DNA of 38,493 bases. Source: Butyrivibrio sp. (lineage in GTDB: Bacteria > Bacillota > Clostridia > Lachnospirales > Lachnospiraceae). A model generated the notes under the pieces. The model saw only the letters and a program-made list of their open reading frames with translations, was not told the origin of the DNA and made no database searches. Where the stretch lies: positions 1 through 38,493 of the forward strand of contig JAGAAO010000056.1 of assembly GCA_017615275.1 (NCBI GenBank), in the 5' to 3' direction. The translations under genes and the position numbers were made by a program. Below, piece by piece: positions 10,845-17,693 of this stretch. Each line of letters starts with the position of its first letter. Within the stretch, counting starts at the first letter, position 1.

Positions 10845-12332
10845 TCATTCTGCGGGAATAGCATCATCCAAAGCATATCCGTCGAATGTGCCGCCATTTA
10901 CTCCATATCCCGTAATCTTATTAAAATCTGCATAGCGCCACACTTTACACACCTTATCCGAGAAATTTCCTTCGATAGTGTACACCTTGCGGGTGGCTTT
11001 ATCATAACCGACAACTATCGCAGTGTGTGATGCTCCCGCCGATTTAAGGAACATTATATCACCGTACTTTGGAGTGTATGACTCCTTATACTTAAATCTT
11101 CCTCTTGCGATGTAATCGTTCATACCTGCAGTCACGGCGTCATACTTGGGAACAAGGCCGTCCGGATTGGCTGATGATCTGAGAATGCCTGCCTGATATG
11201 CGCACCATGATACGAATATTGCGCACCATGCTACTCCGTTATATCCAAACCACTCGCCGTATTTCGTAAGGTTCTCACCCTGCTCCTTGTAGCCATACTC
11301 AGCCAGAGCAATATTCACGAACTTCTCAAGCACACTGTCTGATGCGCCGAATTTAGACGCTGCATTGTATACCTGATTTATTCCTTCTGTGTACTTGTCA
11401 GTCGCAGCCTTGTGAAGACTATCGAGAGTCACTTTGCCGGACACAGCTCCCAGGATATCGAGTGCTTTCTTGGGACTGCTGTTGTACAGATTTGCAAAAT
11501 AGATCAGCGCTCTGTCATCGACAATCCCTCTCATCTCGCCTGCATCGATAAAGCGGTTCACATCATTTATAGCCTTATCATACTGAGCCTTGCGACCAAA
11601 TTCGCTTCCGAGAAGTTCCTGCATCGCAGCTCTTTCAGCATCGCTCAAATGCCTTCCGATGAACACCTTTCTGTCCTGCTTAATATCCTTTACAAGCTCT
11701 GAGTCTTTTCCAAGAATATCTTCAACGGTCGCCCTGCCAACATCATACATAAGTTCCAAAAGATCGTGCGCATTTTCTTCAGACCACTGCAGAATTCCGA
11801 TACTCACGGCTTCATCGGGATCAACGAAAGTATAATCCCCACCTGCTTTCATGATCACGTCGATCGTAAATTTTACGATATCACCTGAGAACTCTCCTAA
11901 AGTTTGATCATCCGCTGGGATGTCATCAACTTTTTTATTATCATCATTTACAACAGGTGTAAAAGAAGCATAAAGCTTTGCCTTCGTCTGCTCTCCGACC
12001 ATTCCGTCGGCAGTAAGTCCGTTATCTCTCTGGAAATCGAGAATGCCGTTATAAGTCTTCTCTCCCGCAACGCCGTCCGCAGAACCGATATTGTATCCGG
12101 CATTTATGAGCCCCTGCTGAATTGGAATGATCTGATTCTTAAGCATATTCCATGTCGCGTCGTCAACAACTCCTGTCGGAACGAGCCCATACATAGACTG
12201 AAATCTCTTGACCGCATTCTCTGTTCCCGGTCCGAATATTCCGTCAAGTCCATTGGGATTGAAGCAAAGCATTCTAAGTCCCTGCTGCAAGTATTTTACT
12301 GTATTGCTGTTATCTCCTCTTTGTAAGTTCAT
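10845..12332 (-). CDS. Endolysin-like peptidoglycan hydrolase (2x PG-binding, lysozyme-like, CHAP)
   Basis: This 495-residue protein has no signal peptide. Residues 3-64 and 69-122 are two peptidoglycan-binding type 1 domains (DGIFGPGTENAVKRFQ; DGMVGEQTKAKL). Residues about 150-330 contain EAVSIGILQWSEENAHDLL, which resembles phage tail- or endolysin-type lysozyme domains. Residues about 345-480 are a CHAP amidase/endopeptidase with WCAIFVSWC (C370), ASHTAIVVGY (H436) and TIEGN (E454). I chose the ATG at 12332, with GAAAGGAG seven bases upstream, over an in-frame ATG 13 codons earlier. The lack of a signal peptide plus the divergent sigma/holin genes suggests release through the holin. It stands apart from any phage structural gene. 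Confidence 0.88.
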   Translation of the reverse strand: MNLQRGDNSNTVKYLQQGLRMLCFNPNGLDGIFGPGTENAVKRFQSMYGLVPTGVVDDATWNMLKNQIIPIQQGLINAGYNIGSADGVAGEKTYNGILDFQRDNGLTADGMVGEQTKAKLYASFTPVVNDDNKKVDDIPADDQTLGEFSGDIVKFTIDVIMKAGGDYTFVDPDEAVSIGILQWSEENAHDLLELMYDVGRATVEDILGKDSELVKDIKQDRKVFIGRHLSDAERAAMQELLGSEFGRKAQYDKAINDVNRFIDAGEMRGIVDDRALIYFANLYNSSPKKALDILGAVSGKVTLDSLHKAATDKYTEGINQVYNAASKFGASDSVLEKFVNIALAEYGYKEQGENLTKYGEWFGYNGVAWCAIFVSWCAYQAGILRSSANPDGLVPKYDAVTAGMNDYIARGRFKYKESYTPKYGDIMFLKSAGASHTAIVVGYDKATRKVYTIEGNFSDKVCKVWRYADFNKITGYGVNGGTFDGYALDDAIPAE

Positions 12333-12658
12333 ATCGTTTCTCCTTTCGTTTTTTGCGTACGCAATAAGCAAAAAGAGAAACCCCTATGAATTGTAAACCG
12401 CTATCCGAAAAAAATTCGTAAAACTACTAAATCCCTACTTTCTTCACCGTATAAACACGGGTATTTCACATATTTTTCCTATCATAAATATATAACGATA
12501 TAGCGAAAAAGTAGAAAGGCTCCATACACACACCATGAAGATAATTACATAAAATAAGAAACCTTTATGCTACCCGAAAATATTTTACCGACAATTATCG
12601 TTATTTAGTTTCCATACCTTTCATTTTTTTCTTTCTACATTTCGTAGGAGGGAAAAAT
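12333..12658. promoter_or_regulatory. Divergent control region between hydrolase and sigma/holin genes
   Basis: This 326-bp gene-free region contains a perfect 12-bp palindrome TTGCGTACGCAA (12353-12364) just upstream of the hydrolase RBS, and a minus-strand TTTACA (12392-12397), the -35 type used by TcdR/UviA sigma factors. It also has inverted copies ATAACGATA (12492-12500) and TATCGTTAT (12596-12604), plus GTAGAAAG (12511-12518) and CTTTCTAC (12631-12638). No clear sigma-A promoter stands out. AGGAGGG precedes the sigma gene ATG. Confidence 0.45.
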
Positions 12659-13204
12659 ATGAAAGATTTCAAATGCATACTTACGGAAATTAAACAAGGG
12701 AACAAAAACGCGTTTATGGAACTTCTTGAACAATTCAGACCTCTGATCGTAAAATACTCCAATCTGCTTTATAAGGATGATTTTGAGGACATGAAGTCTG
12801 AATTCACAACCACATTGTGGCAGGCTGTCTGCAACATAAAAAAATATGACATAAACAAGCAGATCGTTCGCTATTTCTCAAATGCACTTCGCATGCGCTT
12901 TCTCGAGCTGTACAGAGAAAGCCGTTCATACAATGACCACTGCCTGCTTGCCGGAGACTACGACTTTTACCAAAATGTCGCAGATCCCGTTTCACAAAAT
13001 GATCATCTGATAACCCAGCTCGACATCAACAAATATATAAATTCGCTAAGTGAAAACATGAAACTGATCGCTCACTACATAATAAACCTGCAGTACAGCG
13101 ACTCAGAAATCGCCAAACACCTGCAGATGTCCCGTCAGTACATAAACCGTATCAGAAGAAAAATACGAGACGACTATTGCAAGAGGTTTAATTATGGATA
13201 CTAA
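12659..13204 (+). CDS. TcdR/UviA-like alternative sigma factor
   Basis: This 181-residue RNA polymerase sigma factor has a region 2-like half (EQFRPLIVKYSNLLYKDDFE, then TTLWQAV and SNALRMRFLELYRES) and a region 4 helix-turn-helix (YSDSEIAKHLQMSRQYINRI, about 147-166). Its size and weak resemblance to ECF factors fit group 5 sigma factors (TcdR, BotR, TetR, UviA, about 180 residues), which switch on toxin or bacteriocin genes. Its coupling to a holin gene by an 11-bp overlap is the same pairing as in uviA-uviB and close to tcdR...tcdE. AGGAGGG precedes the ATG. Confidence 0.75.
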   Translation: MKDFKCILTEIKQGNKNAFMELLEQFRPLIVKYSNLLYKDDFEDMKSEFTTTLWQAVCNIKKYDINKQIVRYFSNALRMRFLELYRESRSYNDHCLLAGDYDFYQNVADPVSQNDHLITQLDINKYINSLSENMKLIAHYIINLQYSDSEIAKHLQMSRQYINRIRRKIRDDYCKRFNYGY

Positions 13205-13658
13205 ACCTTACCTGCTAAGCACATGGCTTCCATCCATCTGCATGTTCTGGTTAAATGAATTTCATCTGATCGGCTTTAGCATACTTTTTTTGATAGCGCT
13301 TATGTGTCTCGATTTCTTTTCAGGACTCCTGGCTGCGAAAAAAGAAGCCCTTGATCACCCGGACGATCCTGCATACGGATGGAGCAGCAAAAAATGTATC
13401 TTCGGAATCTACAAAAAAATCGGATATATACTGACAATCCTTGTGGCGATAAGCATTGATTATCTGATCTTCCACTTTGGCAACGAACTTGAGCTTTCAT
13501 ACCCCGAAGGAGCATATTTCGGCTCCATCGTGATCATATGGCTCACAGTGAACGAGCTGCTTTCAATCTTGGAAAACGCTCAAAAGATGGGCGTAGAGCT
13601 CCCCAATTTCCTAAACCGGGTACTCTCCGTCTCAAGAGACAAAATAAATAAACAATAG
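13194..13658 (+). CDS. TcdE/UviB-like holin
   Basis: This 154-residue membrane protein of the toxin-secretion/phage-lysis holin family has three hydrophobic segments (about 22-44, 70-90, 104-124). It carries the family hallmarks LDFFSGLLAAKKE after the first helix, GIYKKIGYILTILVAISIDY, and the C-terminal NELLSILENAQKMGVELPNF. Holins of this type make pores for release of toxins (TcdE) or lysins. Its ATG lies inside the last codons of the sigma gene, with AGAGG upstream, so the two are translated together. Confidence 0.88.
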   Translation: MDTKPYLLSTWLPSICMFWLNEFHLIGFSILFLIALMCLDFFSGLLAAKKEALDHPDDPAYGWSSKKCIFGIYKKIGYILTILVAISIDYLIFHFGNELELSYPEGAYFGSIVIIWLTVNELLSILENAQKMGVELPNFLNRVLSVSRDKINKQ

Positions 13659-13663
13659 AAAAA

Positions 13664-13698
13664 TTGAAGCGGTGAACCTCAAAAGTTCATCGCTTCAA
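13664..13698. terminator. Shared terminator of holin and ASKHA genes
   Basis: TTGAAGCGGTGAAC pairs with GTTCATCGCTTCAA (one G-U) around a 7-base loop. It starts six bases after the holin stop and overlaps the last codons of the convergent gene. A-rich sequence on its left supports use in the leftward direction. Confidence 0.65.
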
Positions 13699-15220
13699 CA
13701 AATTCTTCATCAAAATCATCTAAATTTGCAAGTACTACCTCAGTCGCACTTTCTTTTATCATATTTATCTCAGACAGAGCTTCCTCTTTTCTTCCCGACA
13801 AGATCTTCGAAAGAACCTTAACAGCGCCCTTAAGCGCACTGTTTCCAATACACTCCGCGCCGCCCGGGAACTCTGTCGGAAACAGCTTTATGCTCCTTAT
13901 CCTCTCATAATCAAGATTAGCGCCAAAGCCACCTGCGATATAAATAATATCGGGAACGCATCCGCCGGTAAGCTCTTTAAGCCCCGTGCTCACAGCTCCT
14001 TTTGCAAGCTGAATATTTCTTATATCCTGCTGCGTAACGGTAATTCGCCCATCATCCGTAAGTGCAAATCCCGTGTCAAAAAACTCGTCTCTAAGCAGTC
14101 CGCTCTTATCCGCAGCTCCTACTCTTACAAGCTCGGAAACAGCTTCCATTATGCCTGTTCCGCAAATCCCGATGGGATCTTTATCGCCTATGGTCTCGAC
14201 TTTGGAAAAAAATGTCACATCAGAGCCCTTCATTATATCGACATGGCAGACAGCTCCCGGTACAGATGCAACTCCGCATGATATCGTTCCGCCCTCAAAG
14301 ACGGGTCCCGCCGCAGTTGATGTCACCTTAAGTTTCTCACCGTCATAAAAAGCCATCTCTCCATTTGTTCCAAGGTCAAGAAGAAGTACCTTCTTATTCT
14401 CAGCATTTATCATATCTGCATAGTAGATACCCGAAACGATATCCGCTCCTACAAACGCAGATATTCCCGGCATTGTAATAAGGCTTGTGCCAAACATCTC
14501 TGTCTCATACACATTATTATCGATCGCAATGTACGGATACTTTCCGAGCCCTTCAACGTCAAGTCCTCTGAATATCTGAAGCATCGTAGTATTTCCCGTA
14601 ACCACGATCTCAGAAATATCTGCAGATGCCTTTTCTCTAAGTTCATTTATCAGCTCCGAGATATCGTTTGTAACAGTCACTCTGAGCTCATCCAGCTTTT
14701 TTTTATCCGAAGCATACGCAATTCTCGATATCACATCCGCGCCCACTCGCCTTTGGTGATTCACACAGCTCGCAGCATCTATTATTTGGGGTTCACAGCC
14801 ATCGCTCATTCCCACAAGCGCCGCTGCAATAGTCGTTGTTCCTATATCGACCGCAATGCCGTACCTGTCATAATTTCCGACATTCACCGAACTTGTCAGC
14901 GTCTCAACAACAATATTCTCTTCCATGAGATTCGAAGCGCCTATGCAAACTTCGCAATCCTCTTCCGGGATGCATCTGCACAGAAGCCTCACGCCGTCAT
15001 CCAAGTCCCTGTCACTCAAAAAGGTCTTATCCTGAGTATTTGGCGCCGGTGCACCGTACGAAAACTTCACCGTGCACTTTCCGCATCTCCCCGCTCCTCC
15101 GCAGGGATATACCACGTCAATACCTGCATCCGCAAGCACGCCCTTGAGCATCTTCCCTTTAACAGCCTCAACCACAACCCTATTCTTTTTATACTCAATA
15201 CTCACCCTTATCTTCTTCAT
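13679..15220 (-). CDS. 2Fe-2S/ASKHA protein (DUF4445, RACo-like reductive activator)
   Basis: This 513-residue protein has an N-terminal plant-type ferredoxin domain with C40, C46, C49 and C81 (PCGGAGRCGKC ... LLCRC). It is followed by a linker and an ASKHA ATPase-like domain (YGIAVDIGTTTIAAALVG; LLLDLGTNGEMAFYDG; IYIAGGFGANLDYERI). Homologues use ATP to drive reductive reactivation of corrinoid proteins, normally encoded beside them. No corrinoid protein or methyltransferase is in this window. I chose the ATG at 15220, because further upstream the frame runs into the palindromic repeat. No clear SD is seen. An extended -10-like TGGTACAAT lies just upstream, so the leader may be very short. 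Confidence 0.88.
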   Translation of the reverse strand: MKKIRVSIEYKKNRVVVEAVKGKMLKGVLADAGIDVVYPCGGAGRCGKCTVKFSYGAPAPNTQDKTFLSDRDLDDGVRLLCRCIPEEDCEVCIGASNLMEENIVVETLTSSVNVGNYDRYGIAVDIGTTTIAAALVGMSDGCEPQIIDAASCVNHQRRVGADVISRIAYASDKKKLDELRVTVTNDISELINELREKASADISEIVVTGNTTMLQIFRGLDVEGLGKYPYIAIDNNVYETEMFGTSLITMPGISAFVGADIVSGIYYADMINAENKKVLLLDLGTNGEMAFYDGEKLKVTSTAAGPVFEGGTISCGVASVPGAVCHVDIMKGSDVTFFSKVETIGDKDPIGICGTGIMEAVSELVRVGAADKSGLLRDEFFDTGFALTDDGRITVTQQDIRNIQLAKGAVSTGLKELTGGCVPDIIYIAGGFGANLDYERIRSIKLFPTEFPGGAECIGNSALKGAVKVLSKILSGRKEEALSEINMIKESATEVVLANLDDFDEEFVEAMNF

Positions 15221-15251
15221 ATATGCATTGTACCATACCCTTTTTACCATG

Positions 15252-15823
15252 TTACAATTCGCAGTTTGGGGGACTTCGGGCACCGCGCCTCTGCCTGTAT
15301 ACCGCTGCCAAGGCTGTCTGCGCTCTGTACACGCTGCGGGGGAGATGATTTTTGGTCGCTCTTTCGCTTGGATTTATGGGCTTCAAAATTCGACCTTAAA
15401 TTCTGCAGCTCATAAACTCCATCCCGATAAGAAACGGGCTGAGGCTTTGGGCTTTGTACTTTTGAGTCATTAGCAACAAATCCACATTTTCAGATGTTCC
15501 ATTGTCGTTTTTCCTGCGCATACGAGACGTTTATAGTCGTAGTATGCGCGTTAAAAGAAAAACGACGGAACATCAGGGAAAATGTGAGATTTGTTGGTAG
15601 CGAAAAAGGATAAAGCCCAAAGTTCAGCCCGTTTCTTATCGGGATGTCAAACAAATGAGCCGCGAGAAGAATTTAAGGACGTATTTTGGAGCCTCATAAA
15701 TCAACAGCTCTTTCACAGGCCAAAAATCATCTCCCCCGCAGCGTGTACAGAGCGCAGACAGCCTTGGCAGCGGTATACAGGCAGAGGCGCGGTGCCCGAA
15801 GTCCTTCAAACTGCGAATTGTAA
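15252..15823. repeat. Giant 572-bp imperfect palindrome
   Basis: Outer arms 15252-15355 and 15720-15823 are 104 nt each, without indels, and differ at two adjacent positions (15269-15270 against 15805-15806). Both differences are G opposite T, which is G-U in a + strand RNA. Middle arms 15356-15419 and 15647-15719 still align (shared GATTTATG and CCTTAAATTCT blocks) but with bulges. The centre is the 227-bp palindromic core also found at 16157-16383. No transposase, no obvious target duplication and no credible protein are associated. Confidence 0.92.
15420..15646. repeat. Palindromic core, copy 1 (227 bp)
   Basis: It runs from CATCCCGATAAGAAACGGG to its complement ending CTTATCGGGATG, with an apical stem GCGCATAC/GTATGCGC. 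It differs from copy 2 at four of 227 positions with no indel: 15433, 15540, 15611 and 15633. Confidence 0.92.
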
Positions 15824-15860
15824 ATTTATTGTTAGGGTTATGATCTTTTGAAAGTCCCCT

Positions 15861-16091
15861 TACGTGAGAAGCTGCCTGTTTTCTATTTCCACTCACGTAA
15901 AAAATCATGATTTTGAGGTGAGTCTACGTGAAGTGCCCCAACTTTTTAGCACTTTCTCACGTAAAAGATCCAGATTCTCGGCGAAATCTACGTGAGTCCT
16001 CCCGCTTTTCAACCGAGTTATCACGTAAAATCCCTAATTTCAGAGGTCAAGTTTACGGGAGCTGTTCCAATTTTCCGCAAGCTTTCACGTA
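15861..16091. repeat. Eight-site alternating array, 32-bp phase
   Basis: TACGTGA occurs at 15861, 15925 and 15989, with a variant TACGGGA at 16054. Its reverse complement TCACGTA occurs at 15893, 15957, 16021 and 16085. Consecutive sites start 32 bp apart (33 then 31 around the variant), about three helical turns. The intervening 25-bp stretches are only loosely similar, giving a degenerate 64-bp tandem unit. Each TACGTGA/TCACGTA pair can also fold as a hairpin. No reading frame uses it. Confidence 0.9.
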
Positions 16092-16154
16092 ACCCTCAAC
16101 ATTACTACCGGCACTTTTCTATTGCCGTATGACGCATTTTCGACTAAGTAAACT

Positions 16155-16385
16155 GACATCCCGATAAGATACGGGCTGAGGCTTTGGGCTTTGTACTTTT
16201 GAGTCATTAGCAACAAATCCACATTTTCAGATGTTCCATTGTCGTTTTTCCTGCGCATACGAGACGTTTATAGTCGCAGTATGCGCGTTAAAAGAAAAAC
16301 GACGGAACATCAGGGAAAATGTGAGATTTGTTGGTAGCGAAAAAGGACAAAGCCCAAAGTTCAGCCCGTATCTTATCGGGATGTC
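16155..16385. repeat. Palindromic element, copy 2 (231 bp)
   Basis: It runs from GACATCCCGATAAGATACGGG to its complement ending GGGATGTC. The 227-bp part 16157-16383 is 98% identical to 15420-15646 in the same orientation. The A-to-T change at 16170 is matched by T-to-A at 16370, so the stem is preserved. It lacks the outer 104-bp arms. It ends 93 bp before the SPFH gene. Confidence 0.92.
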
Positions 16386-16478: not shown

Positions 16479-17693
16479 ATGGGGCTTATTCAAGCAGCAA
16501 TGGCGGCAGGCAGTAGCGTACTTGCGGATCAGTGGAGAGAGTATTTCTACTGTCCTTCATTGTCAAATGACATATTACTTACAAAAGGCGAAAAGAAAGC
16601 CGGAAGGGGTGCAAATAAGAAAGGATCCGACAACATAATCTCTGACGGATCTATCATTGCAATTAACGAAGGTCAGTGTATGATCCTTGTCGATCAGGGA
16701 CAGATCACTGAGATCTGCGCCGAGGCAGGTGAATTCGTATATGACGTATCAACCGAGCCTTCAATCTTCTACGGCAGTCTCAGCGAATCGATCGTAAACA
16801 GCTTCAAAGAATTCGGAAAAAGAATCGGATTCGGCGGAACTGCTGCCAAAGATCAGCGCGTATACTTCATAAATACTAAAGAAATTCTCGGAAACAAATA
16901 CGGCACAGTCAATCCTGTTCCATTCCGAGTAGTTGATACAAATATCGGTCTCGACATGGATGTTAGCATCAAATGTCACGGCGAATACAGCTACAAAGTT
17001 GTAGATCCCGTTCTCTTCTACAAGAACATCTGCGGCAACGTAGAGGGTTCATTCAGTAAAGATAAGATTGATTCACAGCTTAAGAGCGAGCTTCTTACTG
17101 CTCTTCAGCCTGCATTTGCAAAGATTTCCGAAATGGGAATCAGATACAGTGCGCTTCCCGGACATACAACCGAGATCTCAAACGCATTAAACGAAGTTCT
17201 CTCTGCTAAGTGGGCAGGCGTTTACGGAATCCAGATCTCCAACTTCGGCGTAAGCTCTGTTATCGCAAATGAAGAAGACGAAAAGACAATAAAAGAACTT
17301 CAGCGCGCAGGCGCACTTCGCAATCCCAACATGGCTGCGGCAACAATCGCAAGTGCTCAGGCACAGGCTATGCAGGATGCGGCTAAGAACACCTCAGCAG
17401 GTCCCATGATGGCATTCGCAGGAATGAACATGGCACAGCAGGCAGGCGGAATGAATGCAAACCAGCTCTTTGCAATGGGCGCTCAACAGGCTCCCCAGCA
17501 GGCACAACCTGCTCAGCCCGCTCAAGCTCAGGCTCCTGCAGGATCATGGACATGCTCTTGCGGATCGGTAAACACAGGTAACTTCTGTTCCAACTGCGGT
17601 GCTTCCAAGCCTTCGGCAAATTGGACATGTTCCTGCGGAACAGTAAATGACGGAAAATTCTGTACAAATTGCGGTTCACCCAAGCCCAACTAA
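16479..17693 (+). CDS. SPFH-domain protein with C-terminal zinc ribbons (YdjI-like)
   Basis: This 404-residue protein begins MGLIQAAMAAGSSVLADQWR, followed by an SPFH/band-7-like domain (about 30-280; FEYDVS-type strands, GIRYSALPGHTTEISNALNE) with no transmembrane helix. A Gln/Ala/Pro-rich linker (about 325-350) then leads to two CxC...CxxC zinc ribbons, WTCSCGSVNTGNFCSNCG and WTCSCGTVNDGKFCTNCG. This matches the family of B. subtilis YdjI, a membrane-stress scaffold that works with YdjG and YdjH. AAAGGAG is well placed before the ATG. It is the first gene of a three-gene operon, with 9 bp to the next. Confidence 0.85.
   Translation: MGLIQAAMAAGSSVLADQWREYFYCPSLSNDILLTKGEKKAGRGANKKGSDNIISDGSIIAINEGQCMILVDQGQITEICAEAGEFVYDVSTEPSIFYGSLSESIVNSFKEFGKRIGFGGTAAKDQRVYFINTKEILGNKYGTVNPVPFRVVDTNIGLDMDVSIKCHGEYSYKVVDPVLFYKNICGNVEGSFSKDKIDSQLKSELLTALQPAFAKISEMGIRYSALPGHTTEISNALNEVLSAKWAGVYGIQISNFGVSSVIANEEDEKTIKELQRAGALRNPNMAAATIASAQAQAMQDAAKNTSAGPMMAFAGMNMAQQAGGMNANQLFAMGAQQAPQQAQPAQPAQAQAPAGSWTCSCGSVNTGNFCSNCGASKPSANWTCSCGTVNDGKFCTNCGSPKPN

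What the first reader, a model, noticed from the sequence alone, without database searches (positions are those of the whole stretch)
15252..16385. Pair of giant palindromes with compensatory changes: candidate structured RNA
Seen: two direct copies of a 227-bp palindromic core differ at four positions. A15433/T15633 in copy 1 is T16170/A16370 in copy 2, a double change that keeps the base pair. T15611 against C16348 both face G (G-U or G-C). T15540 against C16277 lies next to the apex, where a G could face either. The 104-bp outer stem of element 1 has only two mismatches, both G opposite T. On the + strand every one of these is compatible with RNA pairing; on the minus strand the G-T cases would be A-C. 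Inference: selection on a + strand hairpin RNA, or a recently mobile palindromic element. I know no named RNA family that fits.
Basis: partly seen in the sequence, partly recalled or inferred. Interest (0 to 1): 0.85.

Follow-up and report, generated by a model that had tools for sequence, protein, structure and literature searches.

The report
Mobile giant hairpin elements in Butyrivibrio
The two giant palindromes belong to a family of jumping DNA elements, so far seen only in rumen Butyrivibrio bacteria, that fold end to end into one 450-800-base hairpin whose two arms change together; this probably happens by one arm being copied onto the other in the DNA rather than because a hairpin RNA is being preserved.

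Summary
W1 (15251-15824) is a single ornate hairpin; W2 (16155-16385) is a copy of its inner part. A model of the core matches 16 of 79 Butyrivibrio genomes and none of 333 other genera sampled from the family. Full-length copies (~745 bp) carry a three-hairpin head. Three copies in one relative have ends GTTACCATTCAC and an 8-bp target duplication; another genome shows the site empty (two) or with a remnant (one). The window's own site is empty in 10 of 10 relatives where both flanking genes were found. So this is a non-autonomous transposon, MITE-like but palindromic over nearly its whole length.

Arm pairing is strongly covariant, yet the strand argument fails: over 26 elements, isolated helix mismatches are 29 G-T against 28 A-C among 6278 Watson-Crick pairs. 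The closest copies differ only by one-sided changes; two-sided ones appear with distance and cluster. One copy differs in the outer ~70 bp of both arms; one has an inverted core. This fits DNA-level arm copying (template switching) better than selection on a + strand RNA. Transposase, transcript and core function remain unknown.

The parts
15251..15824 (+). Element W1: whole hairpin element, ends GTTACAATTCGC...GCGAATTGTAAA
   Evidence: Self-complementary over the whole length; end resembles GTTACCATTCAC of G030/G001 copies
15252..15355 (+). Outer stem, 5' arm (copy-specific sequence)
   Evidence: 104 nt, 98% complementary to 15720-15823; paired outer-stem positions differ 45.7% among four G000 copies
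15720..15823 (+). Outer stem, 3' arm
15356..15378 (+). Asymmetric loop A region, 5' side
   Evidence: Self-alignment; recurs in other copies and species
15694..15719 (+). Asymmetric loop A region, 3' side
15379..15404 (+). Helix between loops A and B, 5' arm (partner 15668-15693)
   Evidence: Inverted pair I4
15668..15693 (+). Helix between loops A and B, 3' arm
   Evidence: Inverted pair I4
15405..15419 (+). Loop B region, 5' side
15647..15667 (+). Loop B region, 3' side, motif CAAACA (CAGACA in other copies)
15420..15648 (+).
   Evidence: 98% identical to 16157-16385; four differences
15464..15603 (+). Inner core matched by model R1 (form without the head domain)
   Evidence: paired core positions differ 2.9% among four G000 copies
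16155..16385 (+). Element W2: inner part only, a partial second copy
15825..16154 (.). Spacer between W1 and W2: a second, unrelated repeat with TCACGTAAAA every 64 bp; absent from the relatives' sites
   Evidence: not in the short intergenic regions
15243..15250 (+). Possible decayed target duplication, left (TTTACCAT)
   Evidence: 5 of 8 identical to 15825-15832 TTTATTGT, read by eye; inconclusive
15825..15832 (+). Possible decayed target duplication, right (TTTATTGT)
   Evidence: read by eye; inconclusive
13679..15220 (-). Left neighbour, RACo-like gene
   Evidence: Pfam RACo_C_ter, Raco_middle, Fer2
16479..17693 (+). Right neighbour, SPFH/Band 7 gene; 130-232 bp from the RACo-like gene in 10 relatives

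Best explanation
The window holds members of a Butyrivibrio family of non-autonomous transposon-like elements. Each is one giant imperfect hairpin: a long, nearly perfect, copy-specific outer stem, helices separated by asymmetric loops in a fixed order, an inner core, and in full-length copies a head of three small hairpins. SHOWN: copies move or have moved (8-bp target duplications, shared ends in part of the copies, empty sites), no known protein domain was found in them, and some are reduced to short remnants. SHOWN: arms co-vary strongly and the mismatches show no overall strand bias. INFERRED: a transposase encoded elsewhere, acting on the ends, moves them; and the arms stay complementary because replication copies one arm from the other (template switching within the hairpin), which would also explain the arms that differ as a block and the inverted core of one copy. 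INFERRED and weakest: loops and core persist because they are needed for propagation.
For: Multi-copy in the own genome and in G030/G001. Three G030 copies with GTTACCATTCAC ends and 8-bp duplications AAAAATGA (8/8), TTTATAAT (8/8), AACTTTC[T/C] (7/8); contiguous sites without the element in G001 for two of them, a 47-bp remnant for the third; one G001 copy's site empty in G030. Window site: 1258 bp here, 130-232 bp in 10 of 10 relatives in which both genes were found. Covariation: 302 pairs, 94.9% of cells paired (40.6-47.1% when slid), 92 pairs changed on both sides, score 0.182 vs 0.071 shuffled, 0/500. No overall strand bias: isolated mismatches G-T 29, A-C 28, other 23, with 6278 Watson-Crick pairs in 26 elements; all cells of 11 copies G-T 48, A-C 46, other 106, Watson-Crick 2752. 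Three closest copy pairs (three copies): 33 one-sided, 0 two-sided changes. Two-sided changes adjacent 217 times, 53 expected. Outermost ~70 bp of both arms unrelated between G001 C16 and G030 copies that are 95% identical over the 423 bp inside. Core inverted relative to loops A/B in C70. 0 Pfam matches for 10 internal or overlapping ORFs.
Against: Only 3 of 9 G030/G001 copies with both ends in the contig show the GTTACC ends and the duplication; other species' copies share no terminus that I could see. No autonomous partner with these ends was found in three genomes (not every 1-mismatch place was looked at). Clustering of two-sided changes could also come from variable helices lying beside constrained ones, and the copy pairs are not independent. 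Pure arm copying would be expected to erase the loops, so something else must keep them. Loops A/B are not the slowest part (17.5% differences, paired core 2.9%). In the head, G030_C16 has 7 G-T and 0 A-C (8 vs 1 over all copies), as an RNA reading would predict, though it is one copy and looks like a mix of two hairpin versions.
Confidence: 0.7

Rival explanations
1. A giant structured + strand RNA, spread by a mobile element, whose helices are kept by compensatory selection.
For: Very strong covariation; asymmetric loops in the same order in most elements; a branched head whose 201-nt stretch folds at z = -12.3; 7 G-T and 0 A-C in the head of one copy.
Against: Overall G-T and A-C mismatches are equal: 29 vs 28 isolated, 48 vs 46 in all cells; isolated wobbles are 0.46% of the Watson-Crick number, whereas real RNA helices carry many G-U (recalled knowledge, no control run). 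Promoter- and terminator-like sites around W1/W2 at chance level (3 vs 2.0 expected; 0 vs 1.4). No Rfam family. No constant gene arrangement.
Confidence: 0.12
2. A single-stranded DNA hairpin that an enzyme recognises (like attC sites of integrons or the ends of IS200/IS605), with loops marking the strand and helix sequence free to vary.
For: Strand-neutral, almost strictly Watson-Crick helices with unpaired bases at fixed places.
Against: 8-bp target duplications point to an ordinary staggered-cut transposase rather than single-strand integration (recalled knowledge). No dedicated enzyme is evident beside the copies, but neighbours were only listed as ORFs.
Confidence: 0.13
3. An inert MITE: the hairpin is only a by-product of long inverted repeats, and loops and core look conserved because copies are young or exchange sequence with each other.
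For: Paired core differs 2.9% among four G000 copies while their outer stems differ 45.7%; cores diverge strongly between species.
Against: Loop order and short motifs (TTCATGG / CTCATGAA, CAGACA) recur between species whose helices are unrelated (patterns written after seeing the sequences).
Confidence: 0.25
4. Assembly artefact (inverted chimera).
For: Many G030 contigs end inside copies.
Against: Arms differ at loops; copies lie intact inside long contigs, including one of 3.6 Mb (G074:C2).
Confidence: 0.01

Closest known systems
Prokaryotic MITEs (review PMC10969869, passages read)
   Same: No gene of their own, inverted repeats at the ends, short target duplication, intergenic, can fold into a stem
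   Different: Review: typically <500 bp with terminal repeats of ~4-30 bp; here full copies of about 745-790 bp in which the inverted repeat is almost the whole element, with ordered loops and a branched head
Foldback elements of eukaryotes (e.g. Tm1, PMC3169594, search listing only)
   Same: Very long terminal inverted repeats that can snap back (recalled)
   Different: Bacterial; one continuous imperfect hairpin
REP/REPIN and ERIC-type bacterial palindromes (PMC3116915, PMC3733652, search listings only; rest recalled)
   Same: Dispersed intergenic bacterial palindromes
   Different: REPs are 20-40 bp (abstract start of PMC3733652), ERIC about 130 bp (recalled); no comparable loops
Template-switch maintenance of hairpins (PMC8794818, abstract and opening; PMC8604942, abstract)
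   Same: One event can create or repair a stem, homogenise arms and invert the spacer
   Different: Described there for RNA genes and short inverted repeats of yeast; here helices reach 124 bp without a mismatch
Integron attC sites (recalled, nothing looked up)
   Same: Variable stems with fixed unpaired bases
   Different: Far smaller; integrase context not tested here; target duplications here

Membership tests
Prokaryotic MITE | No transposase or other gene inside | tested here: met
   10 internal or overlapping ORFs of nine copies, 0 Pfam matches (ORFs)
Prokaryotic MITE | Shared terminal inverted repeats | tested here: inconclusive
   GTTACCATTCAC in several G030/G001 copies, similar ends in W1 and C90; none shared with the other species' copies that I could see
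Prokaryotic MITE | Direct target duplication | tested here: met
   8-bp duplications at 3 of 9 G030/G001 copies with both ends in the contig; the other six have no defined ends; W1 only 5 of 8
Prokaryotic MITE | Dispersed copies with empty sites | tested here: met
   4 of 6 joined-flank queries gave a contiguous site in the other genome, one of them holding a 47-bp remnant; window site, 10 of 10 relatives
Prokaryotic MITE | Typically below 500 bp with short terminal repeats | tested here: not met
   The three copies with duplications are 744, 744 and 793 bp; inverted repeat nearly the whole length
Prokaryotic MITE | Related autonomous element with the same ends | tested here: not met
   Pattern GTTACCATTCACR, up to 1 mismatch, in G030, G001, G000: no pair of ends around a gene noticed; some single ends are remnants (9 loci inspected)
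Structured RNA family | Covarying helices | tested here: met
Structured RNA family | Strand-consistent G-U tolerance | tested here: not met
   Isolated G-T 29 vs A-C 28; all cells 48 vs 46; head alone 8 vs 1, seven of the eight in one copy
Structured RNA family | Transcribed | not testable with these tools
   No expression data; promoter scan at chance level
Structured RNA family | Match to a known family | tested here: not met
   Rfam: only a tRNA in the window; in six element loci a separate FMN riboswitch and two miRNA hits below threshold, one of which lies in the head of L112
Integron attC / IS200-IS605 ends | Dedicated recombinase or HUH transposase nearby | not tested
   Neighbours only listed as ORFs; families run only for seven window proteins

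The most novel reading that the evidence does not exclude
A mobile element whose transposable unit is itself a large, architecturally conserved single-stranded fold (ssDNA or RNA): loops and head are recognised by a protein, helix sequence is free, and each round of copying re-templates one arm from the other, so that structure is inherited while sequence is continually renewed.
Probability: 0.2. Interest if true: 0.85.

Novelty: new variant of a known kind. Interest (0 to 1): 0.6.

Why it matters
Long near-perfect palindromes are expected to be unstable in bacteria (recalled), yet this genus keeps some thirty that I could read, mostly of 450-800 bp, and renews their sequence. The family is a natural experiment on how inverted repeats are kept complementary. 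It is also a warning: strong covariation, usually read as proof of a structured RNA, arises here with no overall sign of strand-specific RNA selection. The mismatch-type test used here (G-T against A-C) is simple and could be applied to other covariation-based RNA claims.

Tried and rejected
First strand test (18 G-T vs 15 A-C over 17 elements, W2 left out) had five elements in the wrong orientation, because model R1 picks the strand badly in divergent copies; repeated with corrected orientation. I chose that orientation by the loop features themselves, so the polarity table is partly circular, and its loose patterns were written after seeing the sequences (A5 21, A3 21, B3 23, B5 21, D3 20 of 26; C70 fails through its inverted core, and G102 and G011 lack the outer part).

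In one search single comparisons lean either way: those with G030_C16 mostly show more G-T than A-C (for example 15 vs 5), several with G030_C12 or G001_C18a show more A-C. Over all cells the sum is even.

Ends by permissive extension gave no common terminus and were dropped.

SbcCD idea: SbcD (TIGR00619) is over cut-off in 37 of 79 genomes: 5 of 16 element-bearing and 32 of 63 others, Fisher p = 0.26; longest perfect helix by SbcD status p = 0.26. All five genomes with a perfect helix of 42 bp or more lack SbcD, but this is not significant and the genomes are not independent. The weak G034 hit stays below the SbcD cut-offs.

Hits outside the genus from the genome contigs pattern (4 of 5 loci): self-complementarity scores 42-108, maximum of 20 shuffles 54-100; three slightly exceed their own shuffles (106 vs 96, 82 vs 70, 108 vs 100), none comes near B. 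hungatei (516 vs 82). R2 in the family: 2 of 397 genomes, both Butyrivibrio, 0 of 333 other genera. R1 in the order: 3 of 295, all Butyrivibrio, 0 of 128 other genera. Both used the stricter filters that lose weak matches. Phages, plasmids and two exact patterns in viral contigs: none. G070's R2 hits have poor hairpins (two of three looked at), so 16 of 79 may be 15. R2 has only 25 pairs.

One search used a wrong-frame RACo query; one search repeated it in frame on the 10 of 29 non-own loci where the gene had been hit; the other 19 fetched loci and the genomes without a fetched locus say nothing about the site.

Not in print: searches listed no description of such elements in Butyrivibrio; most subscription journals are not held.

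Full report
OBSERVATION. Outer stem, middle helices and core of element W1 (15251-15824) are one continuous hairpin with asymmetric loops; W2 (16155-16385) is the inner part only. Between them lies an unrelated repeat.

A FAMILY. The window's genome (G000, 99 contigs) has four further long copies on contigs C6, C36, C90 and C70 and fragments on C49, C79, C36 and C25. The genus is Butyrivibrio: G034's copy lies on a 179157-base contig that is B. hungatei XBD2006 in the named collection. Covariance model R1 matched 10 of 79 genus genomes, and R2, from 11 cores of several species, 16 of 79; the loci looked at hold palindromes of about 230 to 690 bp, those of G070 poor. Outside the genus: 0 of 333 other genera with R2, 0 of 128 with R1, nothing in phages, plasmids or two viral-contig patterns.

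FULL LENGTH. A DNA search with a G030 copy gave 54 matches in G030 and 29 in G001. By my count these are about 10-15 and 7-10 copies plus fragments; pieces at contig ends may be two halves of one copy. Many carry an extra ~174-nt head between the arms: a stem closing three small hairpins; a 201-nt stretch around it folds at -100.8 kcal/mol, z = -12.3. The eight copies with all or part of the head and both arms are 660-793 bp. G030 C3, G001 C16 and, by comparison, W1 look like forms that lost the head; C25 and C49 hold still shorter ones.

MOBILITY. Three G030 copies begin and end with GTTACCATTCAC and sit in 8-bp duplications (AAAAATGA, TTTATAAT, AACTTTC[T/C]); for two the site in G001 is contiguous without the element, for the third G001 holds a 47-bp remnant of the two ends; one G001 copy's site is empty in G030. 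Two of the six joined-flank queries gave no contiguous site. At the L112 site the empty allele has 33 further bases, apparently a local duplicated hairpin. At the window's own site the RACo-like and SPFH genes are 1258 bp apart, but 130-232 bp in all 10 relatives in which both were found among 29 fetched loci, and the joined flanks align to the empty site. Whether W1, spacer and W2 came in one event or several cannot be told. W1's own duplication is at best decayed (TTTACCAT / TTTATTGT, 5 of 8). The copies lie in ordinary intergenic regions of no fixed arrangement: by my reading, 7 divergent, 6 tandem, 3 convergent (one uncertain). No Pfam domain in 10 internal or overlapping ORFs.

HOW THE ARMS STAY PAIRED. 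On 11 G030/G001 copies, 302 pairs give 94.9% paired cells (slid 40.6-47.1%), 92 pairs with two-sided changes and covariation 0.182 vs 0.071 shuffled, 0/500 (the structure came from these sequences, which favours it). Among four G000 copies, paired outer-stem positions differ 45.7%, inner helices 24.6%, paired core 2.9%, unpaired positions 17.5% outside and 15.9% inside the core. So outer stems turn over fast but stay nearly perfect, up to 106 bp in G000 and 124 bp in G078 without a mismatch. Isolated mismatches are G-T 29, A-C 28, other 23 beside 6278 Watson-Crick pairs of 26 elements; over all cells of the 11 copies G-T 48, A-C 46, other 106: no overall strand preference. Against this, the head alone has G-T 8, A-C 1, seven of the eight in one copy (G030_C16), whose second head hairpin looks like a mix of two versions. 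The three comparisons among the closest copies (G030 C12, C13a, C3) have 33 one-sided and no two-sided changes (11 G-T, 7 A-C, 15 other); more distant pairs have up to 46 two-sided changes beside 8-55 one-sided ones, the highest with G001_C15, whose outer part aligns poorly. Two-sided changes in the shared inner part lie next to each other 217 times against 53 expected, summed over 47 non-independent pairs. The G001 C16 copy is 95% identical to a G030 copy over 423 bp, but the outermost ~70 bp of both arms are unrelated, and nearly perfectly paired in each. C70 has its core inverted relative to loops A and B. Arm homogenisation and spacer inversion are what template switching between inverted repeats is reported to cause (PMC8604942, abstract), and it can create and repair stems in one event (PMC8794818, abstract and opening). 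I therefore prefer DNA-level arm copying to compensatory selection on an RNA. This is inference: no event was observed.

WHAT REMAINS. Loops keep order and short motifs across species, although arm copying should erase them; some function in propagation is the simplest guess, untested. The transposase is unknown. The SbcD association is not significant.

COMPARISON. A review (PMC10969869, passages) gives prokaryotic MITEs as typically below 500 bp with 4-30-bp terminal repeats, and 7-9-bp direct repeats in one example. The present elements work like MITEs but fail the size and terminal-repeat part and have no known parent; hence a new variant. A survey of inverted repeats in bacterial genomes names B. 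hungatei as having the overall lowest number of them (PMC10434271, passages); the passages I saw do not mention giant ones.

Noticed in passing
window 15825-16154; also G000 C73:43458, C42:60884, C15:37784, C25:2437 and C25:2248, C4:54353: A second dispersed repeat with TCACGTAAAA every 64 bp and TACGTGA in between, 69-75% alike at six other places of the own genome; in 40 other Butyrivibrio genomes only one 30-base match (G019).
   Followed up: partly
L112 (right flank), L117 and L119 (both ends): Some copies abut a terminator-like hairpin of the type TGAGCCCTAGGGACGGAGGTTGGGGCTCATTTT, in L117 and L119 at both ends, as if captured into the palindrome.
   Followed up: no
L115 and L118, loop B: The same ~50-nt insert (ACACTCTGTGCGTC...) in loop B of two copies.
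   Followed up: no
L155 (G001:C16:93749-93795), L159 (G030:C12:127054): Short remnants made only of the two element ends, as left by deletion of the hairpin.
   Followed up: partly
G030 contigs C3, C7, C9, C10, C12, C13, C18, C19, C21: Many contigs end inside copies, so copy numbers in draft genomes are uncertain.
   Followed up: no
Butyrivibrio genomes: SbcD is over the family cut-off in only 37 of 79 genomes (25 of 47 near-complete ones match at all), unexpected for a palindrome-cleaving nuclease.
   Followed up: partly
L033 1999-2116: FMN riboswitch beside the G078 C61 copy.
   Followed up: no
window 10845-12371 and 13194-13658: Peptidoglycan-binding/CHAP protein and a phage-type holin close together, possibly a prophage remnant or lysis cassette.
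   Followed up: no
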